DNA of 64,000 bases, taken from assembly GCF_003044185.1 (NCBI RefSeq), contig NZ_PYYB01000001.1, forward strand, positions 2,128,978 to 2,192,977, in the 5' to 3' direction. Position numbers and translations under genes: made by a program. Shown here piece after piece: positions 26,844 to 49,661 of this stretch; within the stretch, counting starts at the first letter, position 1, and each line of letters opens with the position of its first letter. The notes under the pieces are model-generated. The model was not told where the DNA came from and made no database searches. It was given only the letters and a program-made list of their open reading frames with translations. The stretch comes from Paraconexibacter algicola. GTDB lineage: Bacteria > Actinomycetota > Thermoleophilia > Solirubrobacterales > Solirubrobacteraceae.

Positions 26844-27287
26844 TCAGGCGTCGGGCAGCAGGTCCGGCTCGCCGGCGGGCAGCACGAGCTCGCCGGCCTC
26901 GTCGAGCTCGAGCTCGACCCACACGAGCGTGCGGCCGTGACCCTCGACGCCCCAGCGGCGCGCCAGCTTCGACACGAAGTGCATGCCCCAGCCGGAGCCG
27001 CGGTGCTGGTTGGGCGTGCGCGGCCGCACGACGAAGCCCCCGCCCGCGTCCTCGACCTCCAGGCGCAGGGTCTGCTCGTCGCGCACCAGGCGGACCTTGA
27101 CCTCGGGCGCGTCCGGCGTCGTGCGGCCGTGACGGATCGCGTTGGTGACGAGCTCGGACAGCAGCAGGCGCAGCGCGAAGGTGTCCCGGGGCCCGAGCGG
27201 CGGGCGCACCTCGTCCGCGATCTCGCGGGCCTCGGCGATCGAATCGGCGGTGGGCGCGTACGCCCTCTCCACGGTCCAGGGAGTCAT
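26844..27287 (-). CDS. RsbW-like ATP-binding anti-sigma/serine kinase
   Basis: A 147-residue HATPase_c_2 protein: N box LLLSELVTNAIRHGR, G1 box VEDAGGGF and G2-like RGSGWGMHFV. Such proteins bind a sigma factor or phosphorylate a STAS partner. ATG at 27287; the gene diverges from a STAS gene whose start is 24 bp away, consistent with a kinase-antagonist pair. Confidence 0.85.
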   Translation of the reverse strand: MTPWTVERAYAPTADSIAEAREIADEVRPPLGPRDTFALRLLLSELVTNAIRHGRTTPDAPEVKVRLVRDEQTLRLEVEDAGGGFVVRPRTPNQHRGSGWGMHFVSKLARRWGVEGHGRTLVWVELELDEAGELVLPAGEPDLLPDA

Positions 27288-27298
27288 CTCTCGGGACG

Positions 27299-27304
27299 TA
27301 TAGT
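27299..27304 (+). promoter_or_regulatory. -10-like TATAGT in the RsbW/STAS divergent gap
   Basis: TATAGT is 7 nt before the GTG at 27312, suggesting a leaderless transcript. No -35 is obvious. The whole gap between the divergent genes is only 24 bp. Confidence 0.4.
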
Positions 27305-27311
27305 TCCACGT

Positions 27312-27623
27312 GTGGAGGCGCAGAAACTCAGCATCGAGCAGAAAGACGATTCCCGGCGCACCCGGGTCACCGTCCGCGGCACCCTCGACCTCGCGGGCGT
27401 CGGGGCGCTGGACGACCATCTCGACGGCGTCACCGCGCCCGAGGTCGTGCTCGATCTGCTGGGCGTCCCCTTCATGGACAGCTCCGGTCTCGCGCTCCTG
27501 CTGGACCGCACCGCCGAGTTCCGGGGACAGGGCCGCACGCTGACGCTGGCCCCGAGCGCGGCGGTGCGCGCGGTCCTCGACCTCGCGCAGGTCGACGGCG
27601 AGCTGGACCTGGTCGATGGCTGA
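27312..27623 (+). CDS. STAS anti-anti-sigma factor
   Basis: A 103-residue STAS domain with the phosphorylatable serine in MDSSGLALLL. Dephosphorylated forms sequester RsbW-type kinases and free the sigma factor. It overlaps the LOV-PP2C phosphatase gene by 8 bp, so antagonist and phosphatase are made together. GTG at 27312 is the start in frame before KLSIEQKDD. Confidence 0.85.
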   Translation: MEAQKLSIEQKDDSRRTRVTVRGTLDLAGVGALDDHLDGVTAPEVVLDLLGVPFMDSSGLALLLDRTAEFRGQGRTLTLAPSAAVRAVLDLAQVDGELDLVDG

Positions 27624-29460
27624 GCGCGACGCGATCGTCCTCGACGCCGATCCCGACCGTCGCGGGGCGGTCACGGCCGAGCTGCAGCGTCACGGGCACG
27701 CCGTGCGCGAGGTCGACGACCTCGCCACGCTGCTGCCCGCGACCGTCGGGACGCCGCTGTTCGTCGTCGGGGTCGATGACGACGCCGGGGTCGAGGCGGT
27801 CCGCACGATCCGCATGACGCCGGGCGGGGAGGAGGCGGTCATCGTCGCCGTCCAGCGCGCCGCCGACGGGTACCTGTCGGCGCTGCTGCGCGCCGGGGCC
27901 TCCGACGTCTGGGTCCTCCCGGACCGCGAGTCGACGATCCCGCAGGTCGAGGTCCGGCTCGTGCTCGCCGAGCACTACGCCCGCCTGCAGGTCGAGCACG
28001 CGCGCGTCGGCGGTGAGCTCAACGTCCTCAAGCGCGCGCTGGACCTCAGCGGCACCGGCTTCGTGCTCACCGACCCGCGGCTGCCGGACAACCCGATCGT
28101 CTACGCCAACCGCAGCTTCGCCGAGGTGACCGGCTACCCGCTCGAGGAGACCCTCGGGCGCAACTGCCGCTTCCTGCAGGGCGAGTACCGGGACCAGCCC
28201 GCGGTCGCGGAGATCACCGAGGCGATCCGCGAGCAGCGCAGCGTGTCCGTGACGCTGCGCAACGTGCGGCGCTCCGGTGAGGAGTTCCTCAACGAGGTCC
28301 ACATCGCTCCCGTGCGCGACGACGACGGCACGATCTCCCGCTTCGTCGGCGTGCAGATCGACGTCACCGAGCAGCAGAACACCGGGGCGCGCCTCGCGCT
28401 GGAGCAGGAGGCACGGCGGCGCGCGGAGCGCGAGCGTCGCCGCATCGCGATCGTGGCCGCGGGCACCGCGTCGATGGACCGGGCCGAGAGCCGCGAGGCG
28501 GTCCTGCGCGCGCTGCGCGGCGCCGTCGGCGACCTGCTCGGGCCGGCGTCGGTCGTCGACCTCGCCGACGGGGAGATCGAGCAGGATGACCGCACCTGGG
28601 TCATCCACGACGCCGATCATCCGACGAGCAGCCTCGTCCTCGACACGACCCCCGACGACGTCGACGACCGCTCGGCCGTCGACCTGCTCGTCGAGCGCAC
28701 CGACGAGGCGCTGACCCGCGTCGGCCGACGGCTCGCCGAGCGCGGCCTGATCCGCGCGATGCGCGAGAGCCTCGAGCCGCTGCGCCCCGTCGCGATCGAG
28801 GGGCTCGACGTCGACGCGCAGGTCGAGCCGGCAGGGCCGGGCCTCGCGGTCGGCGGCGACTTCGTCGACAACGTCGTGTTCTCCGACGGCACGTCCGGGG
28901 TCGTGCTCGGCGACGTGACGGGCAAGGGGCCGCGCGCCGCCGCGCTCACCGGTCTCGTGCGGCACACCGTGCGGGCCTGCGCGCGCCTCAGCGCGTCGCC
29001 GTCGCAGGCGCTGGAGCTCGTGAACCTCATGCTGCTGGACGTGCCCGACCGGCGCCGGTACTCGGCGCTGACGCTCGGCCAGGTCCTCGGCCCCGCCGAC
29101 GGCGCCGGCCTGCGGGTGCGGTTCGCGCTCGCGGGCAGCCCGCCGCCGGTCGTGCTCCGCGACGGCGGCGACGCCCGGGTCGAGGGTGCGCCCGGCACGC
29201 TGCTCGGCGCGACCGACACGCCGACGTTCACCGACTCCGAGGTCACGCTCGGCCCCGGCGAGGTCGTGGCGTTCTTCTCCGACGGCGTCTCCGAGCCGCT
29301 GGGCGGTGGCGTGCAGGCCAGCGAGCGGCTCGCGGAGCTGCTGCGCGGCGTGCCGACCGGGGCGGTCGATGTCACGGCCGCGATCCTGCGCCACGGCAAC
29401 GCGCTCGAGGGCCCCGTGACCGACGACCGGGCCGTGATCGCGCTCGGCCCCGGTCGGTAG
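27616..29460 (+). CDS. LOV-domain PP2C (SpoIIE/RsbU-type) phosphatase, predicted blue-light sensor
   Basis: A 614-residue protein. Residues 5-125 resemble a receiver domain but lack the usual Asp/Lys motifs. Residues ~138-255 are a LOV/PAS domain with the photoactive motif GRNCRFLQ (Cys184), which forms the flavin adduct in blue-light receptors. A linker and coiled coil (255-290) follow, then the PP2C domain from ~390 with VGGDFVDN, LGDVTGKG and FFSDGVSEP metal-binding motifs. It would dephosphorylate the STAS protein encoded just upstream, linking blue light to sigma-factor release. Confidence 0.9.
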   Translation: MAERDAIVLDADPDRRGAVTAELQRHGHAVREVDDLATLLPATVGTPLFVVGVDDDAGVEAVRTIRMTPGGEEAVIVAVQRAADGYLSALLRAGASDVWVLPDRESTIPQVEVRLVLAEHYARLQVEHARVGGELNVLKRALDLSGTGFVLTDPRLPDNPIVYANRSFAEVTGYPLEETLGRNCRFLQGEYRDQPAVAEITEAIREQRSVSVTLRNVRRSGEEFLNEVHIAPVRDDDGTISRFVGVQIDVTEQQNTGARLALEQEARRRAERERRRIAIVAAGTASMDRAESREAVLRALRGAVGDLLGPASVVDLADGEIEQDDRTWVIHDADHPTSSLVLDTTPDDVDDRSAVDLLVERTDEALTRVGRRLAERGLIRAMRESLEPLRPVAIEGLDVDAQVEPAGPGLAVGGDFVDNVVFSDGTSGVVLGDVTGKGPRAAALTGLVRHTVRACARLSASPSQALELVNLMLLDVPDRRRYSALTLGQVLGPADGAGLRVRFALAGSPPPVVLRDGGDARVEGAPGTLLGATDTPTFTDSEVTLGPGEVVAFFSDGVSEPLGGGVQASERLAELLRGVPTGAVDVTAAILRHGNALEGPVTDDRAVIALGPGR

Positions 29461-29541
29461 ACGGCTCGCGCGCCACGTCCGCGGCGGGAACGCGGTCAGT
29501 CTGCCCGGCCGCGATGTCCGTCGGATAACGTCGGGTGTCAG

Positions 29542-29904
29542 ATGCACGTGCGTGCCGAAGCCCTGCGCCCCGACCGGGTGCTCGTCAGCGCCTCCGGGCC
29601 ACTCGACCTCGCCACGGCGCCGCGCCTCGCGGACGTCCTGCGGGCCGAGTCGCCGGGACGCAACGTCATCGTCGACCTCAGCGACGCGACGTTCATCGAC
29701 TCCACCGGTCTCGCGGTGCTGCTGAACGCGTCCCGCCGCGCGGTCGCGCGCAGCACCTACCTCGTCGTCGTCTGCCCGCAGGGACCGGTGCTGCGCATGT
29801 TCGAGCTGGCGCTCCTGCTCGAGACGCTGCGGGTCGTGGACTCCGTCGCCGCGGCGCTCGACGCGCTCGACGCCGCCGAGAACGGCCCGTACCGCCCGGT
29901 CTGA
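29542..29904 (+). CDS. STAS anti-anti-sigma factor
   Basis: A 120-residue STAS protein; phospho-serine site IDSTGLAVLL near residue 55. It lies between two PP2C phosphatase genes and is likely the substrate of one or both. ATG at 29542. Confidence 0.85.
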   Translation: MHVRAEALRPDRVLVSASGPLDLATAPRLADVLRAESPGRNVIVDLSDATFIDSTGLAVLLNASRRAVARSTYLVVVCPQGPVLRMFELALLLETLRVVDSVAAALDALDAAENGPYRPV

Positions 29905-29946
29905 GTCACCGCCCGTCCCGCCGGGGCGGTGTGACAGAGTTGGCGC

Positions 29947-31119
29947 GTGTCCGAGGTCCGGGAACCGGCAGTCGACGGCGCGCTCGCCATCCTGCTGGTG
30001 GAGGACGACGAGGGCGACGCGCTCATCGTGCAGGAGGAGCTCGAGCTCGCCGGCAGCCGTCACGCGGTCACGCACGTCCGCACGCTCGCCGACGCGCAGG
30101 CGCACCTCACCGCCGCGCGACCGGACTGCGTCCTGCTCGATCTCGGGCTGCCGGACTCCCGCGGCTTCGACGGGCTCGCGGCGCTCCAGCGGCTGACGGA
30201 CGCCGCGTTCGTCGTGCTCACCGGCCTGGCCGACGCCGACCAGGGCATCACCGCGCTGTCGCACGGCGCCCAGGACTACCTCGTGAAGGGAGCGGTCGAC
30301 GGCCCGCTGCTGCTGCGCGCCGTCCGCTACGCCGTCGAGCGCCGCGCCGCGGAGCGCTCCACCACCGCGCTGCGCGAGGCGGAGATCGCCGCGCTGGAGA
30401 ACGCGCGCCTGGAGCGGGGGCTGCTGCCCACGCCGCTCGTGCGCGACCCGGCGGTCCGCGTGCACACCGCATCCCGTCCCGGGCGGCGCAGCGGCGTGCT
30501 CGGCGGGGACTTCTACGACGCGGTCGAGACCGACGACGGCCGCCTGCTGCTGCTCATCGGCGACGTCTGCGGGCACTCCGCCGACGAGGCGGCGCTCGGG
30601 GCCAGCCTGCGGATCGCGTGGCGCGCGCTCGTGCTCAGCGGCGTCCCGACCGAGGAGACCTTCACCGTGCTCGACCGGGTCCTGGCGTGCGAGCGGCACG
30701 ACCCGACGATCTTCGCCACCGCGCTGATGCTCGCCGTCGAGCCCGACCATCGCACCGCCCGCGCGTGGGTGGCCGGCCATCCCCGCCCGCTGCTGCTGGG
30801 GCCGGGAGCCGCCGAGCAGCTCGCCGCCCGCGCGCAGCCCCCGCTGGGCACGGGCTTCGTCACCCGCTGGGACGCCAGCGCGCTGACCCTCCCGGCGTCG
30901 TGGTCGCTGCTGCTGTTCACCGACGGGCTCTACGAGGGCTTCGACGACCCGCACGGGAGCGGGGAGCGGCGGCTCGGCGAGACCGGCCTGGCGCGCCTCG
31001 TCGACGCGCAGCCGCCGCGGGACCGCGACGACCTGCTCGGGCTCGTCGCCGCGGTGGAGGAGCGCAACGGCGGACCGCTGACCGACGACGTCGCCGCGCT
31101 CCTGGTGTCGGTCGGCTGA
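29947..31119 (+). CDS. Response regulator with PP2C phosphatase output
   Basis: A 390-residue RsbU/RssB-type regulator: receiver domain ~14-130 (ILLVEDDEGDALIV, phospho-Asp in VLLDLGLPDS, Lys in YLVKGA), a helical linker, and a PP2C domain (LGGDFYDAVE, IGDVCGHS, LFTDGLYEG, DDVAALLV). Phosphorylation by the kinase at 31119, whose ATG overlaps this stop (TGATG), probably switches the phosphatase on a STAS partner. Confidence 0.9.
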   Translation: MSEVREPAVDGALAILLVEDDEGDALIVQEELELAGSRHAVTHVRTLADAQAHLTAARPDCVLLDLGLPDSRGFDGLAALQRLTDAAFVVLTGLADADQGITALSHGAQDYLVKGAVDGPLLLRAVRYAVERRAAERSTTALREAEIAALENARLERGLLPTPLVRDPAVRVHTASRPGRRSGVLGGDFYDAVETDDGRLLLLIGDVCGHSADEAALGASLRIAWRALVLSGVPTEETFTVLDRVLACERHDPTIFATALMLAVEPDHRTARAWVAGHPRPLLLGPGAAEQLAARAQPPLGTGFVTRWDASALTLPASWSLLLFTDGLYEGFDDPHGSGERRLGETGLARLVDAQPPRDRDDLLGLVAAVEERNGGPLTDDVAALLVSVG

Positions 31120-36178: not shown

Positions 36179-36865
36179 GTGGGCCGCCGGGCCGGGGTCG
36201 CCCTGGACGTCGACGGCACGCTCGTGGACAGCGTGCACCACCACGCCGTCTGCTGGCAGCGCGCGTTAGCGCAGCTCGGGCACGACGTATCCGCCGCGCG
36301 TGCCCACCGGCACGTCGGCATGGGCGGCGACCAGCTGGTCGAGGCGCTCATCGGCGCCGAGGGCGAGGCCCGTGACGGTGACGCCCTGCGCGCCTCGCAC
36401 GACGCGCTCTTCGCGATCGACCTGCCGACCGTCCGGCCGCTGCCCGGCGCGCGGGACCTGCTGGTCGCACTCGCCCGCGAGGGTGCCCCGGTCGTCCTGG
36501 CGAGCTCTGCGTCCGAGGACGAGGTGCGCCACTACCTCGACCTCCTCGACGCCGACGATCTCGTCGCGGGATGGACGACGGCAGACGACGTGGACGCCAC
36601 GAAGCCTGACGGCGCGCTGCTGCAGGTGGCGTGGCGTACGCTCGGCACCGAGGCGGCCGTGATGATCGGGGACAGTCCGTGGGACGTGCTCGCCGCGCAG
36701 GACGCGGGGATGCCCGCGATCGGCGTCGACGCGGCGGGGTTCGGATGCGCGAGCCTGCGCGAGGCGGGCGCGGCGCTCGTGGTCGACGGCCTGCCGGACC
36801 TGCTCGACCGCGTGCACGACGAGCCGTTCGTGCAGTGGCGCGACGGGGCGCGCTCAGCCGTCTGA
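36179..36865 (+). CDS. HAD-superfamily phosphatase
   Basis: A 228-residue HAD hydrolase: motif I DVDGTLVDS, motif II VLASSASE, motif III Lys in DATKPDG and motif IV MIGDSPWD. The cap insertion fits phosphoglycolate phosphatase or beta-phosphoglucomutase types. GTG start 2 bp after the preceding stop, so part of the same operon. The substrate is unknown. Confidence 0.85.
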   Translation: MGRRAGVALDVDGTLVDSVHHHAVCWQRALAQLGHDVSAARAHRHVGMGGDQLVEALIGAEGEARDGDALRASHDALFAIDLPTVRPLPGARDLLVALAREGAPVVLASSASEDEVRHYLDLLDADDLVAGWTTADDVDATKPDGALLQVAWRTLGTEAAVMIGDSPWDVLAAQDAGMPAIGVDAAGFGCASLREAGAALVVDGLPDLLDRVHDEPFVQWRDGARSAV

Positions 36866-37312
36866 GGCGGCGAGCGCGTCGGCCGCCGCCTGTCGCGCCT
36901 TTTTCCAGCTGCCCGCCGACGCGAGCACGGACCCGAGCGCCGGGAGCTCCGCGTCGGCGGCGCTGAGCCGCTCGTAGTCGAGCATCCGCAGGCGCGCGAC
37001 GGGGACCTCGACGCGAGCCGCGACGGTGCGCAGCGCCTCGGCGACCACGAGCGGGTCGGCGGCCTCCGCGTCCTCGCGCCGCGCCGCGTTGGCGAGGACC
37101 CCGGCCGCACTGCCGGAGCTCACCGTCGCGGGGTCGACGTCGGTGCGGGCACGGCCCGCGGCGATCCCCAGCCGGCAGTGCGGGCAGCGCATCCGCTGGG
37201 CCGGGAACGGGCCGTCGGCGTCGTCGCCGATCGGCAGCAGGCAGTGTGGGCAGTGCGCGGTGGCCACGACCGCGGGTGTGCCCGGCGCGACGCCCGGCAA
37301 ACATGGATTCAC
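36854..37312 (-). CDS. Zinc-ribbon protein paired with TetR-PP2C
   Basis: A 152-residue protein with two CPHC pairs (AHCPHCLLPIGDD, RMRCPHCRLGI), a likely zinc ribbon, followed by a helical domain rich in Ala. The GTG at 37312 overlaps the stop of the phosphatase gene (GTGA), so they are made together; it may be a partner or DNA-contacting adaptor. It overlaps the HAD gene end by 12 bp. Confidence 0.65.
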   Translation of the reverse strand: MNPCLPGVAPGTPAVVATAHCPHCLLPIGDDADGPFPAQRMRCPHCRLGIAAGRARTDVDPATVSSGSAAGVLANAARREDAEAADPLVVAEALRTVAARVEVPVARLRMLDYERLSAADAELPALGSVLASAGSWKKARQAAADALAASDG

Positions 37313-38685
37313 GGGGTGCCCTTCGCGGGGGCGAGCACGACGATCATCGCGTCGTCGTCGAGGTCCTCGCCGCCGGCGTCGCGGATCGCGCCCTGGATGA
37401 GGCTGAGCGTACGCGCCGGGCTCGCGCCGCGGGAGCGTCGCGCGAGCTCGCGCAGGGCCGCGGCCGAGAGCGGCGCGCCGTCGAGCCCGCTGACGCCGTC
37501 GGACAGCAGCAGGATGCGCTCGTCCGGCCGGACGACCCGGTGCGAGGTCGGGATCGTCTCGGGCAGCGGGTCGGTGGCCAGCTGCGGCAGCGCGTGGTCG
37601 CGCAGGGTGGTCAGCCGGCCCTCCGCGTCGGCGAGCACGGGGTGCAGGTCGCCGGCGGCGACCCAGAACAGCGTCGAGGTGGTGGCGTGCCAGCGGGCGA
37701 CGAACGCCGAGCAGCGGACCTCGTCGCCGCCGATGCTGCGGATCGCCGCGTCCATGTGCTGGATCGCGTCCCGCGGCGTGGAGCCGACGGTCCGCGCCGC
37801 GCGCAGCGCGCCGAGCGCGACGGCGCTCGTCGCCGCCGCCCGCGCCCCCGAGCCGAGCGTGTCGACCGCGGCGATCCACGCCCCGTCCTGGTTCTCGGCG
37901 TGGTCGAACCAGTTGCCGCCGTTCTCGTAGGCGGGCAGGACGTCCCCGGCGAGGCGCAGCCCCGACAGCCGCGCGAGCCGCGGCGGCAGGCACAGCTGCT
38001 GCGTCTCGGCGGCGGCGGTGGTCTCCTTGCGGCGCCGGGACGCGGCGATCACGTCGCTGAACGGCTCGCTCATCGCCAGCGCGATCCCGGCGTGCCGGGC
38101 CATCTCCTGCAGCAGGCCGGCGTCCTGCGCGTCGAGCGCGAGCAGCGCGCCGGTGGCGCGGCCGCGCACGACCATGGGGGCGATCGTGACCGACGGCAGC
38201 GTCGCGGAGACCGCCTCGTGCAGCGCTTCGATGCCCTCGGCCGGGATCTCGGGGCCGGCGGCGAGCCGGACCACCATCTCCTCCGGGAACTCCAGCGAGC
38301 CCGCGGCCCGCAGCAGCCGCGTCCCGCCGATGTCGACCAGGTACAGGGCGACCGCGCGCGCCCGGCTGTAGCGCTGCGCCTCGCCGACGATCTGCTCGGG
38401 CAGCTGGGGCGGGGCGACCCGGTCCAGCAGGGCGGGGATGTCCAGCGGGGCGGGGGAGGGGGCGTCCGCGGCGGGCCGGCGGACCTGCGACGCGCGGGTC
38501 TCCTCCGCCTCGGTGACGAGCGCGGCGATCGTCGGGTAGTGCCGGTACACCGTCGCGCGTGCGACGCCCGCGCGCCACGCGACCGCCCCGGCGGTCGGCG
38601 TCTCGCCGTCGTCCAGGAGGGAGATCGTGGCGTCGAGGATCGCGGAGCGGTTGCGCACGACGTCGCGGCGGTCGGAAGCCGTCAT
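37309..38685 (-). CDS. TetR-type HTH fused to GAF and PP2C phosphatase domains
   Basis: A 458-residue protein of unusual layout. Residues ~10-60 match the TetR_N helix-turn-helix (RSAILDATISLLDD, TAGAVAWRAGVARATVYRHY). Residues ~95-215 look like a GAF sensor. Residues ~240-458 are a SpoIIE/PP2C phosphatase with NGGNWFDHAE (Asn in place of the usual first Asp of GGDWFD), AVDTLGSGA and LLSDGVSGLD. ATG 38685 follows GAGGAGC. It is divergent from a STAS gene, its probable substrate. It could couple promoter binding directly to partner switching. Confidence 0.8.
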   Translation of the reverse strand: MTASDRRDVVRNRSAILDATISLLDDGETPTAGAVAWRAGVARATVYRHYPTIAALVTEAEETRASQVRRPAADAPSPAPLDIPALLDRVAPPQLPEQIVGEAQRYSRARAVALYLVDIGGTRLLRAAGSLEFPEEMVVRLAAGPEIPAEGIEALHEAVSATLPSVTIAPMVVRGRATGALLALDAQDAGLLQEMARHAGIALAMSEPFSDVIAASRRRKETTAAAETQQLCLPPRLARLSGLRLAGDVLPAYENGGNWFDHAENQDGAWIAAVDTLGSGARAAATSAVALGALRAARTVGSTPRDAIQHMDAAIRSIGGDEVRCSAFVARWHATTSTLFWVAAGDLHPVLADAEGRLTTLRDHALPQLATDPLPETIPTSHRVVRPDERILLLSDGVSGLDGAPLSAAALRELARRSRGASPARTLSLIQGAIRDAGGEDLDDDAMIVVLAPAKGTP

Positions 38686-38787
38686 GACGCTCCTCATGCC
38701 ACGCACCTGGCGCCTGAAACCTGGACCTGTCACATTTCGGATCGCACGGCGTCTCAGTTCGCACGACCGCGGGCGAGGTGCGCTTGC

Positions 38788-39153
38788 ATGGAACGTGTCG
38801 TGGGTCCTCAGGTCTGGTTTTCCGTCACCGCCGCCGCGCCCCGGGAGGGTGAGGTCGAGCTGCGCCTGGCCGGCGACCTCGACCTCGCGACGACGACCAG
38901 GCTCCGCGCCGCGGTCGACGAGGCGATCGGCGACGGGGGACGCGGGACGGCGCTGGTGCTCGAGCTCTCCGAGCTGCGGTTCGTGGACTCCACGGGCATC
39001 CGCGTGATCCTCGACCTCCGCACCGAGCGGCTCGCCGACGGCGGCCGGCTGATCCTCCGCGCGCCGACCCCGGCGGTCCTGCGCGTGCTCGAGCTGATGG
39101 CGCTCGACACGGTGCTCGAGATCGAGCGCGGCAGCACCCCGGCGACGGACTGA
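38788..39153 (+). CDS. STAS anti-anti-sigma factor
   Basis: A 121-residue STAS protein (VELRLAGDLDLATTTRLRAA; phospho-serine in VDSTGIRVIL). It is transcribed away from the TetR-GAF-PP2C gene with a 102-bp gap that may hold the binding site of that protein. Likely antagonist of an RsbW-type kinase in the window (44129 or 26844). Confidence 0.85.
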   Translation: MERVVGPQVWFSVTAAAPREGEVELRLAGDLDLATTTRLRAAVDEAIGDGGRGTALVLELSELRFVDSTGIRVILDLRTERLADGGRLILRAPTPAVLRVLELMALDTVLEIERGSTPATD

Positions 39154-43757: not shown

Positions 43758-44132
43758 TCAGACGACCCGCAGGTGCAGGCGCTGCCGGCCGTCGCGGCCG
43801 GTGCGCACCTCGGTCGCCGCGAGACCGGCGAGCACGCGACCGTCGCCGGCGTCGAGGTCGAGCAGCCGGTGCGGCACGCCTGCGTCGAACGGCCCCGCGA
43901 GCAGCTCGATGCCCCCGTCGACGATCCGCACCGCCAGCTCCAGCGACCCGCCGGGCAGGACCGCCTCGCAGTGTCGGCCCAGCGCCTCGCCGACGAGCAC
44001 GGCCTCCTCGACGCGATCGATGCCCAGCGTCGTGTGCGCGGCGAGCGCCCGCACGAACCGCGGCACGAGCGCGTCCGCGAGCGGGCCGCACGCGACCTGC
44101 AGGCGCGCGCGGGAGATGGTCGGGTCGGTCAC
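43758..44132 (-). CDS. RsbW-like degenerate protein or hypothetical
   Basis: A 124-residue protein translated from a GTG that overlaps the RsbW-type gene (GTGA). The helix RVEEAVLVGEALGRHCEAVL and following strands LELAVRIVDGGIELL recall the HATPase_c_2 fold, but the N-box Asn and G boxes are missing, so it cannot bind ATP normally. It may be an inactive partner of the upstream kinase. Assignment is tentative. Confidence 0.55.
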   Translation of the reverse strand: MTDPTISRARLQVACGPLADALVPRFVRALAAHTTLGIDRVEEAVLVGEALGRHCEAVLPGGSLELAVRIVDGGIELLAGPFDAGVPHRLLDLDAGDGRVLAGLAATEVRTGRDGRQRLHLRVV

Positions 44133-44527
44133 GCGGGCCGCCGCGGGAAGCGCATGCGGACCTCGTGCGCCCCGTCCGGGGCGACGCCGATGTGCAGGTC
44201 GTCGGTGAGCGCGCCCATCAGCGGGAGCCCGACGCCGAGGCCGGGGGAGTCGGTCCGCGGGACGATCCCGGTGCCGTGATCGCGGACCGCGATCGTCGGA
44301 TGCCCGTCGTCGACGCCGCCATGGACCTCGAGCAGGCCGGGCTCGCGGTCGCGGTAGGCGTGGATGACGACGTTCGTGCACGCCTCGATCGTCGCGATCT
44401 GGATGTCGTCCAGCTGCTCGCGCGTGACGTCCCAGCGACCCTCCAGACCTTCGAGCAGATGCCGCACGCAGGTGATCGCGTCGGCGTGTGCCGGGAGCGT
44501 CAGCTCGAAGGCGGTGCGGGACTCCAC
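44129..44527 (-). CDS. RsbW-type anti-sigma factor/serine kinase
   Basis: A 132-residue HATPase with N box IEACTNVVIHAY, G1 VRDHGTGI and G2 GLGVGLPLM. It is divergent from the sigma factor gene at 44640 (112-bp gap), the natural regulator-target arrangement. GTG at 44527. Confidence 0.85.
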   Translation of the reverse strand: MESRTAFELTLPAHADAITCVRHLLEGLEGRWDVTREQLDDIQIATIEACTNVVIHAYRDREPGLLEVHGGVDDGHPTIAVRDHGTGIVPRTDSPGLGVGLPLMGALTDDLHIGVAPDGAHEVRMRFPRRPA

Positions 44528-44577
44528 GGAATGCAGTGTGCCCGGTGTCGGCGAAACGAGGCATCCGACCCGCCGGG

Positions 44578-44600
44578 GTTTCGCCCGGACGTCCGGGTGG
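44578..44600 (+). promoter_or_regulatory. SigB/F-type promoter of the sigma factor gene
   Basis: GTTT (44578-44581), 13-bp spacer, GGGTGG (44595-44600), about 39 nt before the GTG at 44640. It suggests that the sigma factor autoregulates, as known for SigB and SigF. Confidence 0.55.
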
Positions 44601-44639
44601 AATAGCGCCAGAAGGCCACCGAACCCTTGGAGCGACGAC

Positions 44640-45428
44640 GTGCACGAGACCAGCGCAGCACCCCGCGGACACGGCCGGGCCCGTGAGCAGGACCTCCTGC
44701 GTCGCTACCACGAGCACGGGGACTTCGCTGCCCGTGACGCGGTCGTGGAGCGCACGATGCCGCTCGTCCACCACGTCGCCCGGCGCTACCAGAACCGGGG
44801 CGAGCAGTACGACGACCTCGTCCAGGCGGGCGCCGTCGGCCTCGTCAAGGCGGTCGACCGCTTCGACCCGTCGCGCGGCATCTCCTTCACCTCCTTCGCG
44901 GTGCCGAACATCGCCGGCGAGATCCGCCGGCACTTCCGCGACAAGGGCAACACGGTCCGGCTCCCGCGCGACATCCAGGAGCGCGCCGCCGCCCTGCACA
45001 AGGCCGGTCAGGAGCTCGAGGGCACGCTGCAGCGCCCTCCGACGACCGCCGAGCTCGCGGAGGCCGCCGGCATGACGATGGACCAGGTGCTCGACACGCT
45101 CGTCGCGCAGCAGCGCCAGGACGTGCAGAGCCTCGACCGCGAGATCGGGGAGGACGCCAGCGGCCACGACCGTCACGGCGAGACCGAGTCCGGCTACGCG
45201 CGCGTCGAGGACCTCGAGGCGCTCCGTGGCGGCATGCGCGCCCTGCAGGAGCGCGAGCGGCGCATCGTGCACCTGCGCTTCTACGACGGCCTCACCCAGT
45301 CGGAGATCGCCGAGCGGATCGGCATCAGCCAGATGCACGTCTCGCGCCTGCTACGCCAGGCGCTGCAGGACATGCGCCGCGCGATGGCCGAGCCCCAGGC
45401 GCCGGAGCGACTGCTGCGCGAGGCGTGA
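44640..45428 (+). CDS. SigB/SigF-family RNA polymerase sigma factor
   Basis: A 262-residue sigma factor with region 2 (PLVHHVARRYQNRGEQYDDL, GLVKAVDRFDPSRGI, SFAVPNIAGEIRRHFRD), region 3 (LHKAGQELEGTLQRPPTTAE) and region 4 HTH (LTQSEIAERIGISQMHVSRL). Three paralogues of this group are in the window (also 57321 and 58224). The GTG at 44640 follows a leader with a SigB/F-type promoter. Confidence 0.95.
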   Translation: MHETSAAPRGHGRAREQDLLRRYHEHGDFAARDAVVERTMPLVHHVARRYQNRGEQYDDLVQAGAVGLVKAVDRFDPSRGISFTSFAVPNIAGEIRRHFRDKGNTVRLPRDIQERAAALHKAGQELEGTLQRPPTTAELAEAAGMTMDQVLDTLVAQQRQDVQSLDREIGEDASGHDRHGETESGYARVEDLEALRGGMRALQERERRIVHLRFYDGLTQSEIAERIGISQMHVSRLLRQALQDMRRAMAEPQAPERLLREA

Positions 45429-45451
45429 TTGCGTCATCCGTCGGCGGGTAG
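45427..45451 (+). promoter_or_regulatory. SigB/F-type promoter of the DUF1360 gene
   Basis: GATT, 15-bp spacer, GGGTAG (45446-45451), exactly 9 nt, ATG 45461. It starts inside the stop region of the sigma factor gene. Confidence 0.55.
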
Positions 45452-45460
45452 CCGCCGCGG

Positions 45461-45937
45461 ATGGCCCAGCACGAGCCCTTCCCCGATCCCGCCTCCGCTC
45501 CGCCGCTGCGGGGCTATGCGTTCCTGACCGCCACCTTCGCCGGGCTCGCGGTCGTCGGGGGGGCGCTCGCCGGGCGCGCGGGTCCCTCCGTCGAGCTGCA
45601 GGCGCGTGACGTCGCGCTGCTGGGGGCAGCGACCTTCAAGATCAGCCGCCTCGTGACGCGCGAGCACGTCACGACGGTCATGCGTCGCCCGTTCACCCGG
45701 CACGCCGGACCCGACGGCGACCCGACGGAGGTTCCGCGCCGTGACGGGCCCGTCCGGCAGGCGCTGGGCGAGCTGCTGCTGTGCCCCTACTGCCTGGATC
45801 ACTGGGTCGCGGCCGGCTTCGTCATCGGTCTGCACCGGGCGCCGGACACGACCCGCGCGGTGGCCGCCGTCTACGCGGTCACCGCGGTCGGTGACGCCGC
45901 GCAGCTCGCGTGGCGGGCCGCGCAGGCCCGGGCGTGA
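45461..45937 (+). CDS. DUF1360 membrane protein
   Basis: A 158-residue protein with a hydrophobic segment at ~20-42, TFKISRLVTREHVTTVMRRP and the characteristic CPYCLDHWVAA motif followed by a membrane helix. DUF1360 proteins are of unknown function and frequently stress-linked. Promoter with N9 spacing. Confidence 0.85.
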   Translation: MAQHEPFPDPASAPPLRGYAFLTATFAGLAVVGGALAGRAGPSVELQARDVALLGAATFKISRLVTREHVTTVMRRPFTRHAGPDGDPTEVPRRDGPVRQALGELLLCPYCLDHWVAAGFVIGLHRAPDTTRAVAAVYAVTAVGDAAQLAWRAAQARA

Positions 45938-45943
45938 GGTCGC

Positions 45944-48007
45944 TCACCGGTCGAGCGCGAACGCGAGGACCGCGACGTCGTCCGGCAGCTGACCGCCGGC
46001 CGCCCGGTCGCGGGCATGCCGCTCGATCGCGCCGGCCACCCCGAACGGCCCGCCCGCCGCGGCGGGCGCCACGGCAGCGGCGAGCTCGGCCGCCTCGACG
46101 GCATCGTGCGGGTCCGCCTCGGAGACGCCGTCGGTGTACAGGGCCAGGACGTCACCACGCTCCAGCGAGAGCTCCACCGGCGTCAGCCGCACGGCGTCGA
46201 GGACGCCGAGCAGCTGCCCGTCCGCCGGGACCGCGTCGCCGCGACCGTCGGCGCGGACGAGCACGGGAGCGGGGTGACCCGCACAGGCGACCTCCGCGCG
46301 CGCCCGTCCGTCCTTCACCGGGTGCACGCGCACGGCGCACGCGGTGACGAAGCGGCCGTCGGTCCGCTCACGGTGCAGCACGCCGTTCAGCGCGCGAAGC
46401 GCGTCCGCCGGGGCGGGCGCCCCGGGCGCGAGTGCACGCAGCGTATGGCGGGCCTGTGCGGTGACGACGGCGGCGGCGGCGCCCTTGCCGCACACGTCCC
46501 CCACCACGAACAGCCATTCGTCGTCGGGGAGCGGCATGACGTCATAGAAGTCCCCGCCGACGCTGGCCCCGCCGCCGGCCGGCGCGTACCGGGCGCAGAG
46601 CGACATGCCGGGGACGCGGGGAAGCTCCGCGGGCAGCAGCCCACCCTGGAGGGTCGCGGCGGTGGCCGCCTGCTGCGCGTAGAGGTCGGCGGCGAGGCAG
46701 GCGGCCGCGAGCCGTTCCGCGACATCCTGCAGCAGGCGCGCGTCCTCGTCGTCCGGCGCGCCCGAGCTGGTCCACCACGCGCCCGTGACCTCCACCGTCA
46801 CGCGCGTGCCGCTTCGGGCGCGATGGACGCGACGGATCGGAACGGCGCCTCCGAGCGACGGCTCCGGCGCCCCGGTCTCGTGCTCCAGGGCACCGAGCGT
46901 CGGCGCCTGGACGGTGACCCTGACGCGGTCGGCGATCCACGGCACGAGGGCCTCCGCGGTGCCGGTCACCGCGCGGCGCGGATCGCGGACGTCCTGCAGC
47001 AGCTGCGAGACGTCCTGGACGATCTGGCGGCGGTTGACGTCCGCCTGCAGCGACCGCTGCGCGTGCTGCTGCAGCGCCACCGTGGTCTCCGCCCGGGCGA
47101 GCGCGCGCCCGCTCGCGCCGTACCGCCGCGCCGCCTGCAGCGCGAACGCGGCACGCCGTCCGAGCTCGGTGGCCGTCGCGACGTCGTCGCGGTCGAACGG
47201 TCGCGCCGGCCGCGCGCTGACGAGCGTGAGCGTCCCGAGGGTCTCGCCACGCGCGCGCACCGGGACGACCAGCGCGGACCGCGGCTCCAGCGCGTGGAGG
47301 AGCTCGCGGGCCTGGGGTGCCTCGACCGGTGCGTCCGGCAACGACGTGCGCAGGAGTGGACGCCCGCGAGCGTGCACCTCGTCGATCTCGACCGCGGAGA
47401 GCGGCGCACCGGGGAAGGACCGCACGAGCTCCCGCAGCAGCCGGGTCCGGCCCGGGATCCGATGGGCGGCGTGAACGCAGCGGAGGTTCCCGTCGGCGCC
47501 GGGAATCGCGACCACGCACCAGTCCGCGAGCCGCTCGACGGCGATTCGACCGACGGCTGCGAGCGTGGCCGCCTCGTCCAGCTCGTCGTCGAGCAGCTCG
47601 CCGATCGCGGCCAGCAGCGACAGCTGACGGACCAGGCGTCGCCGTCCGCGAGCGTCCGCGAGCGCCTCGGTCACGTCGGCGACGCCGATCAGATGGCCGA
47701 CGGTGGTCCCTGTGGCGTCGGGCAGCGGCAGGGCCGAGATCCGCAGGTCCCGGCGTCGACCGTCGGGATCGGTGCCCGCCGCCTGCAGCGGCTCCGCCTC
47801 GGGCAGCAGGTTCGTCGTACCGGGAGGGACGTCCGGCAGCACCTCGTCCAGCGGACGTCCGATGACCGAGTGCGCGGGAAGACCGGTGAGCGCGACGAGC
47901 TCGGCATTGGCACGAATGACGTTCCCGTCGAGATCGACGTGGGCCAGTCCCGTCTGCGCGAGCGCGAACGCGGCGGCGAGCAGGGTGCTCCCGGTCGGAG
48001 CGCTCAT
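45944..48007 (-). CDS. PAS-GAF-PP2C phosphatase
   Basis: A 687-residue protein: PAS ~10-115 (GLAHVDLDGNVIRANAELVAL), GAF ~140-290 (WCVVAIPGAD; ALVVPVRARGETLGTLTLVS), coiled coil, and PP2C ~465-687 (VGGDFYDVMP, VGDVCGKGAA, LYTDGVSEAD, DDVAVLAFAL). It senses an unknown internal signal and probably dephosphorylates the STAS protein at 48390. It overlaps the NTF2-like gene by 4 bp. Confidence 0.9.
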   Translation of the reverse strand: MSAPTGSTLLAAAFALAQTGLAHVDLDGNVIRANAELVALTGLPAHSVIGRPLDEVLPDVPPGTTNLLPEAEPLQAAGTDPDGRRRDLRISALPLPDATGTTVGHLIGVADVTEALADARGRRRLVRQLSLLAAIGELLDDELDEAATLAAVGRIAVERLADWCVVAIPGADGNLRCVHAAHRIPGRTRLLRELVRSFPGAPLSAVEIDEVHARGRPLLRTSLPDAPVEAPQARELLHALEPRSALVVPVRARGETLGTLTLVSARPARPFDRDDVATATELGRRAAFALQAARRYGASGRALARAETTVALQQHAQRSLQADVNRRQIVQDVSQLLQDVRDPRRAVTGTAEALVPWIADRVRVTVQAPTLGALEHETGAPEPSLGGAVPIRRVHRARSGTRVTVEVTGAWWTSSGAPDDEDARLLQDVAERLAAACLAADLYAQQAATAATLQGGLLPAELPRVPGMSLCARYAPAGGGASVGGDFYDVMPLPDDEWLFVVGDVCGKGAAAAVVTAQARHTLRALAPGAPAPADALRALNGVLHRERTDGRFVTACAVRVHPVKDGRARAEVACAGHPAPVLVRADGRGDAVPADGQLLGVLDAVRLTPVELSLERGDVLALYTDGVSEADPHDAVEAAELAAAVAPAAAGGPFGVAGAIERHARDRAAGGQLPDDVAVLAFALDR

Positions 48008-48387
48008 CGCGGACGTCCCTCGAGGGCGGCGAGCGCGTCGCGGTAGGTCGGATAGCCGGTCGCACGCCGCAGTCGCTCGCCCTCGAACTCGTAGACCCAG
48101 GTCGGCTGGAACGCCTGGTGCGCCTCGGGAGCGTGCAGGTGGACGGCCCCGCGGGCGACGATCGCCTCGCCGTGGACCTCGAGCTCGTACAGCCTGTGCG
48201 TCTGCGCGGACCCGGCCGCCGCCTGGGCGGCGAAGTAGTCGCGGATCTCCGCTCCGACGAACTGCTGTCCACCACCTCCCAGTGGCGTCCAGACGACGTC
48301 GTCGGGCGTCGCGCTGATGACCGCGTCGATGCCGTCCTCCTCGAGCAGCCGGAACAGCTCCCGGACGACGGCGGCCCGCCGGGCCAC
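48004..48387 (-). CDS. NTF2-like (SnoaL) protein
   Basis: A 127-residue alpha+beta barrel protein (VRELFRLLEEDGIDAVISA; GAEIRDYFAAQAAAG; YELEVHGEAIVARGAVHLH). The fold holds small hydrophobic ligands or acts as enzyme. It lies between the STAS and PP2C genes in one operon (2-bp gap and 4-bp overlap) and may be an extra sensory component. GTG start. Confidence 0.8.
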   Translation of the reverse strand: MARRAAVVRELFRLLEEDGIDAVISATPDDVVWTPLGGGGQQFVGAEIRDYFAAQAAAGSAQTHRLYELEVHGEAIVARGAVHLHAPEAHQAFQPTWVYEFEGERLRRATGYPTYRDALAALEGRPR

Positions 48388-48389
48388 GG

Positions 48390-48752
48390 TCAGCCGTCCG
48401 CGAGTCGCTCGGCCGCCGCGACGTCCGCGCGGACGGGAAGCTCGTCGTCGAGCCCGAGCATCGCGAGGACCCGCAGGATCCCGGGTGCCTCCGCCGCCAC
48501 GACCGTCCGGCCGCCCCGGGCCCGCGTCGCCTGAGCGACGCGCAGGAGGACGGACACGCCGGTCGAGTCGAGGAACCGTGCGCCGGTCAGGTCGACGACG
48601 ACGGACGGAGTCGACGCCGCCAACGCCTCGTCCACGGCGCCATCGGCGGCCGCGACGCAGGACAGGTCGAGATCGCGATCGAATCGGATGGTGGCGCGTC
48701 GGCGTCCGACGGTGACGTCGAACGTGTGCGCGCCCGTGTCGCGCTGGCCCAT
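48390..48752 (-). CDS. STAS anti-anti-sigma factor
   Basis: A 120-residue STAS protein with phospho-serine site LDSTGVSVLLRV. First gene of the STAS/NTF2/PP2C operon. ATG 48752 follows a TATGCT -10-like sequence at a short distance. Confidence 0.85.
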   Translation of the reverse strand: MGQRDTGAHTFDVTVGRRRATIRFDRDLDLSCVAAADGAVDEALAASTPSVVVDLTGARFLDSTGVSVLLRVAQATRARGGRTVVAAEAPGILRVLAMLGLDDELPVRADVAAAERLADG

Positions 48753-48809
48753 GCTCCCAGCATAGCCCGTGGTCGCGGTCCTGCGCACTCGAGCGGCGGC
48801 GCCCGTCGC

Positions 48810-48834
48810 GTTTGCCGATGCCGGAGGTGGACAG
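48810..48834 (+). promoter_or_regulatory. Possible SigB/F-type promoter of the SDR gene
   Basis: GTTT (48810-48813), 15-bp spacer, GGACAG (48829-48834), then 11 nt to ATG 48846. The -10 is a variant of GGGTAG. Confidence 0.4.
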
Positions 48835-48845
48835 CCGGTGCGGTC

Positions 48846-49661
48846 ATGGCCACCACCCCCACCCGTCCTCTCGCGCTCGTCACCGGCGCCTCCTCCGGCA
48901 TCGGCCGCGAGCTCGCGCTCCTGCTCGCCGCCGAGGGCTACGACCTCGTCATCACCGCCGAGGACGACGCGCTCGACGACGCCCGCGCCGAGGTCGAGGC
49001 CGCCGGGGCCGGGACCGTCGAGGCACCCCGACTGGACCTCACCCGCGACGAGGACGTCGACCTGCTCGTGCGGCATGTGCGGGAGACGGGGCGCGGCCTG
49101 GACATCGCCGCCCTCAACGCGGGCGCGGGCGCCGGAGGCGCGTTCGCCACCGGCACGGACCTCGCCGACGAGCTGCGCATCGTCGATCTGAACGTCCGCT
49201 CGACCGTCCACCTCGCCAAGCACGTCACCCGGGACATGGTCCGGCGCGACCACGGGCGGATCCTCTTCACCTCGTCGATCGCCGCGACGATGCCCGGCAG
49301 CTACCAGGCCGTCTACAACGCCTCGAAGTCGTTCGTCCAGTCCTTCGCGCTCGCCCTGCGCGACGAGCTCCGCGAAACCGCGGTCACCGTCACCGCGCTG
49401 ATGCCCGGGCCCACGGACACCGAGTTCTTCGCCCGGGCCGACATGCTCGACACGCAGGTCGGGGCGGGGGAGAAGGCGGACGCCGCCACCGTCGCCGCCG
49501 ACGGCTACGCCGCGCTCATGGACGGGGACGAGCGGGTCGTCTCCGGGGATCTCTCCACCAGGGCGCAGGCACTCGCGTCCCGTGTCCTCCCGGACCGCGT
49601 CAAGGCCGCCATGCACCGTCGGCAGGCCGAGCCCGGCTCGGCCGACCGGGACGAGCGGTGA
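48846..49661 (+). CDS. Short-chain dehydrogenase/reductase
   Basis: A 271-residue SDR: TGASSGIG near residue 14, ALNAGAGAGG, catalytic YNASK after TSSIAA. The C-terminal ~60 residues (ADMLDTQVGAGEKAD, GDLSTRAQALA) fit the DltE-like group. It overlaps the glycosyltransferase gene by 4 bp. Confidence 0.9.
   Translation: MATTPTRPLALVTGASSGIGRELALLLAAEGYDLVITAEDDALDDARAEVEAAGAGTVEAPRLDLTRDEDVDLLVRHVRETGRGLDIAALNAGAGAGGAFATGTDLADELRIVDLNVRSTVHLAKHVTRDMVRRDHGRILFTSSIAATMPGSYQAVYNASKSFVQSFALALRDELRETAVTVTALMPGPTDTEFFARADMLDTQVGAGEKADAATVAADGYAALMDGDERVVSGDLSTRAQALASRVLPDRVKAAMHRRQAEPGSADRDER

What the first reader, a model, noticed from the sequence alone, without database searches (positions are those of the whole stretch)
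37309..39153. TetR helix-turn-helix fused to GAF and PP2C phosphatase, divergent from a STAS gene
A DNA-binding TetR_N domain on the same chain as a SpoIIE-type phosphatase is unusual. It faces a STAS gene across 102 bp and is coupled to a zinc-ribbon protein. It may bind that gap and regulate its own antagonist, uniting transcriptional and partner-switching control.
Basis: partly seen in the sequence, partly recalled or inferred. Interest (0 to 1): 0.7.

Follow-up and report, generated by a model that had tools for sequence, protein, structure and literature searches.

The report
DNA-binding stress phosphatase, diverged copy
This gene really does join a TetR-type DNA-binding head to a stress-signalling protein phosphatase, and it belongs to a family found in one class of soil bacteria whose other members share a palindromic DNA site upstream, but this particular copy has lost key residues and that site, so it may no longer work the same way.

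Summary
In detail: window 37309-38685 (-) encodes TetR_N + GAF-like + SpoIIE/RsbU-type PPM phosphatase on one chain, divergent from a STAS gene (38788-39153) and overlapping a small Cys-rich ORF by 4 nt. It is not a one-off: full-length homologues (about 40% identical) are common in Solirubrobacterales and rare elsewhere in Thermoleophilia; none was found outside that class among 396 genomes drawn across the phylum. All 34 aligned members match TetR_N. Relatives are mostly divergent from stress or envelope genes (30 of 39 classed loci, versus 35% of control genes), and their upstream regions share a palindrome found de novo, GRGACA-N3-TGTCYC, that transfers between independent clades. DNA binding near their own promoters is therefore well supported for the family. 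For this copy it is not: it has GGN for the phosphatase motif GGD (N262), Ile for a conserved HTH Arg (I57), the longest branch of the tree (nine times the median), and no palindrome in its gap. A divergent STAS gene occurs at only one other relative examined; the Cys-rich ORF at none. No paper describing the architecture was found in the library searched. No biochemistry was possible; the mechanism is inferred.

The parts
37309..38685 (-). TetR_N-GAF-SpoIIE gene (alternative start ATG at 38697)
   Evidence: ORF and AGGAG before ATG 38685; Pfam; AlphaFold2 mean pLDDT 91
38473..38679 (-). TetR-type HTH (residues 7-75; recognition segment ARATVYRHY; I57 where all relatives aligned have R)
38056..38412 (-). 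GAF-like sensor domain, about residues 96-214
   Evidence: weak Pfam hits; GAF-like strand/helix order in model
37312..37968 (-). SpoIIE/RsbU-type PPM phosphatase domain, residues 244-462
   Evidence: fold match to RsbU domain of Rv1364c Z 24.5, rmsd 2.5 over 219 residues; SpoIIE Z 22.4
37912..37914 (-). AAC codon, N262, in place of the Asp of the GGD/SGD motif
   Evidence: Asp in all 29 relatives and in all seven other SpoIIE domains of the genome that cover the motif
38686..38787 (.). 102-bp divergent gap; lacks the family palindrome; only a half-site CTGAGACG at 38750-38757 (-)
38788..39153 (+). STAS (RsbV-like) anti-sigma-factor antagonist with DSTG motif
36854..37312 (-). small Cys-rich ORF with two CxxC pairs, overlapping the phosphatase stop by 4 nt; not found at relatives

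Best explanation
The gene is a member of a family, so far seen only in Thermoleophilia, in which a TetR-type HTH, a GAF-like sensor and a PPM phosphatase sit on one chain. Inferred mechanism for a typical member: a dimer binds the palindrome GRGACA-N3-TGTCYC between its own gene and a divergent stress gene and controls that promoter pair; a GAF signal changes the dimer, altering DNA binding and, through the helical linker before the phosphatase (coupling shown for RsbU), switching on dephosphorylation of a phospho-STAS protein so that a sigma factor is released. Local promoter control and global sigma control would share one sensor. The window copy is a diverged member: its fold is predicted intact, but N262, I57 and the missing palindrome suggest that catalysis, and DNA binding at its own gap, are weakened or changed. 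Shown by computation: architecture, distribution, conservation, divergent layout, shared palindrome, divergence of this copy. Inferred: DNA binding, dimer, signal, substrate, coupling.
For: Architecture in dozens of genomes; 34 of 34 aligned members match TetR_N and SpoIIE. Active-site motifs kept in relatives. HTH positions R47, T49, R52 invariant and Y51, H53, F54, R57 at 90% or more. Divergent upstream neighbour in 30 of 39 classed loci versus 94 of 268 control genes, p 8e-7. Neighbours include PRC-barrel/DUF2382, holin-X, mechanosensitive-channel, BrkB and DUF892 genes. Palindrome: log-likelihood gain 105.6 versus at most 46.0 in 10 shuffles; trained on one clade it marks 11 of 23 upstream regions of other clades versus 9 of 168 controls (p 5.5e-7), reverse split 8 of 15 versus 6 of 114 (p 9e-6). 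Fold matches for both domains. Window copy: end branch 1.58 versus median 0.17. Linker coupling in RsbU and related phosphatases: PMC12143880.
Against: No experiment. Only about half of the upstream regions pass the clade-independent palindrome test, and of 12 perfect palindromes in 20 genomes only one lies at a family gene. Few members are near STAS or anti-sigma genes, so the substrate is a guess from the phosphatase family. Control regions share genomes but are not all intergenic, and loci are related, so p-values are approximate. N262 may still allow activity, since the other acidic residues are present, and it could be a base-call error (single base, no close relative to check).
Confidence: 0.55

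Rival explanations
1. The HTH serves only autoregulation: it sets the dose of an otherwise ordinary GAF-PPM phosphatase, and DNA binding and catalysis are not coupled.
For: The palindrome lies upstream of the gene itself; TetR regulators commonly autoregulate from divergent gaps (general knowledge); forms matching only the GAF-SpoIIE part exist in some of the same genomes.
Against: Autoregulation alone would not need divergent stress genes to recur, and some motif hits lie in front of other genes nearby (L045, L058).
Confidence: 0.25
2. The phosphatase domain is the input and the HTH the output: like the pseudo-phosphatase domain of E. coli RssB it would act by binding partners, here a STAS protein, and that binding gates a TetR-type regulator. 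The window copy with N262 would be such a pseudophosphatase reading its divergent STAS neighbour.
For: N262 is found only in the window copy; structural neighbours include RssB; the STAS gene is adjacent; the other TetR-bearing relative with a divergent STAS gene (L044, same genome as L095) is also on a long branch.
Against: The other active-site acidic residues are kept in this copy (D279, D400, D448, D449); I57 would weaken, if anything, the DNA-binding output; relatives keep the catalytic residues.
Confidence: 0.12
3. The HTH is a leftover or a dimerisation part without a DNA-binding role, and the window gene is a decaying copy.
For: Fast branch and substitutions at conserved sites in the window copy; no palindrome in its gap.
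Against: For the family, signature positions of the TetR HTH are the best kept of the segment and a palindrome is shared across clades. For the window copy, the reading frame is intact and the predicted fold confident.
Confidence: 0.1

Closest known systems
RsbU/RsbP/SpoIIE-type PPM phosphatases of partner-switching systems (for example the RsbU domain of M. tuberculosis Rv1364c)
   Same: PPM/SpoIIE domain after a sensor domain and helix; fold match Z 24.5; the genome has STAS, anti-sigma-type HATPase and other SpoIIE genes, several of them in this window
   Different: N-terminal TetR-type HTH; usually not beside STAS or anti-sigma genes; the window copy lacks the GGD Asp
TetR family regulators (LfrR, KstR)
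   Same: Same HTH fold and signature residues, divergent gene layout, palindromic site upstream of relatives
   Different: The TetR ligand-binding/dimer domain is absent and GAF plus phosphatase follow the HTH
RssB (P. aeruginosa and E. coli)
   Same: Regulatory domain joined by a helical linker to a SpoIIE-like domain that can act as an adaptor; close structural match
   Different: RssB has a receiver domain and no DNA-binding head

Membership tests
TetR family (DNA-binding domain) | TetR_N HTH sequence and fold | tested here: met
   34 of 34 members match TetR_N; PDB sequence and fold hits to TetR proteins. The window copy alone is just below the Pfam cut-off.
TetR family (full regulator) | TetR C-terminal helical ligand/dimer domain after the HTH | tested here: not met
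   Only a short linker (about residues 73-95) separates the HTH from the GAF-like domain. Longer relatives have unassigned sequence there.
TetR family (full regulator) | Specific binding to a palindromic operator | not testable with these tools
   Palindrome shared by relatives but absent from the window gap; binding itself needs an experiment.
SpoIIE/RsbU PPM phosphatases | PPM fold with SpoIIE-type sequence | tested here: met
   Pfam E 2e-23; Z 24.5 to the Rv1364c RsbU domain, 22.4 to SpoIIE
SpoIIE/RsbU PPM phosphatases | Complete set of acidic active-site residues | tested here: not met
   Window copy has N262 in the GGD motif; D279, D400, D448 and D449 are kept. Relatives keep the GGD Asp, so the family meets this and the window copy does not.
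Partner-switching module | Gene linkage to STAS and anti-sigma kinase | tested here: inconclusive
   STAS is divergent here, and two clusters with HATPase and STAS lie within about 12 kb; among relatives linkage is rare.
GAF domain | GAF sequence and fold | tested here: inconclusive
   Below cut-off here; 6 of 34 members match; model topology consistent

The most novel reading that the evidence does not exclude
One chain unites promoter control and sigma-factor release: a GAF-sensing, palindrome-bound TetR-PPM dimer that both controls a local stress promoter and dephosphorylates an anti-sigma antagonist, so that phosphatase activity or location depends on DNA.
Probability: 0.3. Interest if true: 0.8.

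Novelty: new variant of a known kind. Interest (0 to 1): 0.55.

Why it matters
Stress signalling by partner switching and one-component TetR regulation are normally separate. A conserved family that joins them on one chain, with a predicted DNA site, gives a simple system in which to ask whether a protein phosphatase can be controlled by DNA or can act at a promoter. It also marks a lineage-restricted architecture in the little-studied soil Thermoleophilia. The window copy adds a caution: whoever chose this gene for the experiment would be testing the most diverged member of the set.

Tried and rejected
Close-relative scan of genome contigs with the single protein found nothing; the alignment was needed. 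Conserved STAS partner: rejected as a family trait. Conserved Cys-rich partner: no homologue at the other loci. The palindrome as a unique genome-wide marker: rejected, most perfect copies lie elsewhere, and in the own genome near-matches are not above the reversed control (9 versus 7). Sigma-70 promoter or terminator in the gap: none by consensus. Literature searches for a TetR-PPM fusion found none (open-licence papers only). A search for the SpoIIE mutant D610A gave no paper, so the likely effect of the GGD change rests on conservation, not on a cited mutant. Rows of the VIA-align search covered mainly the phosphatase part, so the HTH was folded and searched alone. Plasmid records hold only one partial relative without the HTH part. 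An early alignment read some loci on the wrong strand and was replaced.

Full report
What is there. The minus-strand gene 37309-38685 (or from ATG 38697) encodes a 458- or 462-residue protein with an HTH of TetR type, a GAF-like domain and a SpoIIE/RsbU-type PPM phosphatase domain. Its TetR_N score is slightly below the Pfam cut-off on its own, but the assignment is secure from relatives and structure: 34 of 34 aligned family members match TetR_N, phmmer finds TetR structures, and AlphaFold2 models of the whole chain (mean pLDDT 91) and of the HTH alone (88) give helices in TetR order, with TetR regulators filling the listed PDB fold matches of the HTH model (modest E-values, as expected for 78 residues). 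The phosphatase domain aligns to the RsbU domain of Rv1364c at Z 24.5 and to SpoIIE at 22.4. The GAF call is the weakest of the three.

Distribution. Profile and protein searches find full-length copies across families of the window's order and in a few other genomes of its class; named genera include Solirubrobacter, Patulibacter, Conexibacter and Paraconexibacter. In a draw of 396 genomes over the phylum, matches outside the window's own family covered only the GAF-phosphatase part. Contig length and coordinates tie G114, of the window's own genus, to Paraconexibacter antarcticus. Some Thermoleophilaceae and related proteins of 687-730 residues read TetR_N, roughly 100 unassigned residues, PAS, GAF-like, SpoIIE; this looks like a fusion with a whole TetR protein, but no TetR C-terminal family was matched.

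Is the DNA-binding head in use? Three observations say so for the family. The HTH signature positions are its best-kept residues. The upstream neighbour is divergent in 30 of 39 classed loci, against 94 of 268 control genes. A palindrome GRGACA-N3-TGTCYC was found de novo in the upstream regions; trained on one protein clade it marks upstream regions of the other clades well above control genes from the same loci, and the reverse training finds the same spacing. It is not universal, and perfect copies occur elsewhere. Neighbours of representative loci include PRC-barrel/DUF2382, holin-X, mechanosensitive-channel, BrkB, DUF892 and MpsC genes, many of them stress- or envelope-related by general knowledge.

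The window copy. It is the outlier of its family. The GGD Asp, present in all 29 relatives and (as GGD or SGD) in all seven other SpoIIE domains of its genome that cover the motif, is Asn; an HTH arginine kept in all relatives aligned is Ile; its tree branch is 1.58 against a median of 0.17; its gap has one half-site at best, and the own genome shows no excess of the palindrome.

The STAS and zinc-ribbon neighbours. STAS 38788 is a good RsbV-like protein with a DSTG motif. Such a protein would be substrate, not antagonist. Among 39 other loci a STAS gene is divergent at one TetR-bearing relative (L044) and downstream at P. antarcticus (L053, with a second SpoIIE gene and an HATPase gene). The Cys-rich ORF overlapping the stop was found at none of them. 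The window holds two further partner-switching clusters, so phospho-STAS substrates are probably available in the cell.

Mechanism. Coupling of sensor to PPM domain through a helical linker is reported for RsbU and proposed as general (PMC12143880); PPM phosphatases act on STAS proteins with docking specificity (PMC11418112). Adding a DNA-bound HTH suggests that one sensor governs a local promoter and a sigma switch. That joint function is inference; autoregulation alone is the main rival, and for the window copy a pseudophosphatase reading its STAS neighbour cannot be excluded.

Verdict. A real, lineage-restricted domain architecture with a predicted operator, apparently undescribed in the open literature searched; the gene flagged is a diverged member of it.

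Noticed in passing
window 26844-31119: Partner-switching cluster: HATPase (-), STAS, PAS-SpoIIE, STAS, receiver-SpoIIE.
   Followed up: partly
window 44129-48900: Second cluster on the minus strand: HATPase, PAS-GAF-SpoIIE, SnoaL-like ORF, STAS; the window holds 4 of the genome's 9 SpoIIE matches.
   Followed up: partly
L109, L119, L125, L126, L129: Longer relatives with TetR_N, unassigned sequence, PAS, GAF-like and SpoIIE parts, 687-730 residues.
   Followed up: partly
L132 upstream of 6001: Same GAF-phosphatase core preceded by a GGDEF-like sequence in an open frame; seen by eye, no family search.
   Followed up: no
L045 about 2988 and L058 about 1395 bp after the start of the family gene: Further palindrome hits in front of other genes nearby, one between divergent genes; possible local regulon.
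   Followed up: no
L053 (Paraconexibacter antarcticus): Family gene followed on the same strand by STAS, a second SpoIIE gene and an HATPase gene.
   Followed up: partly
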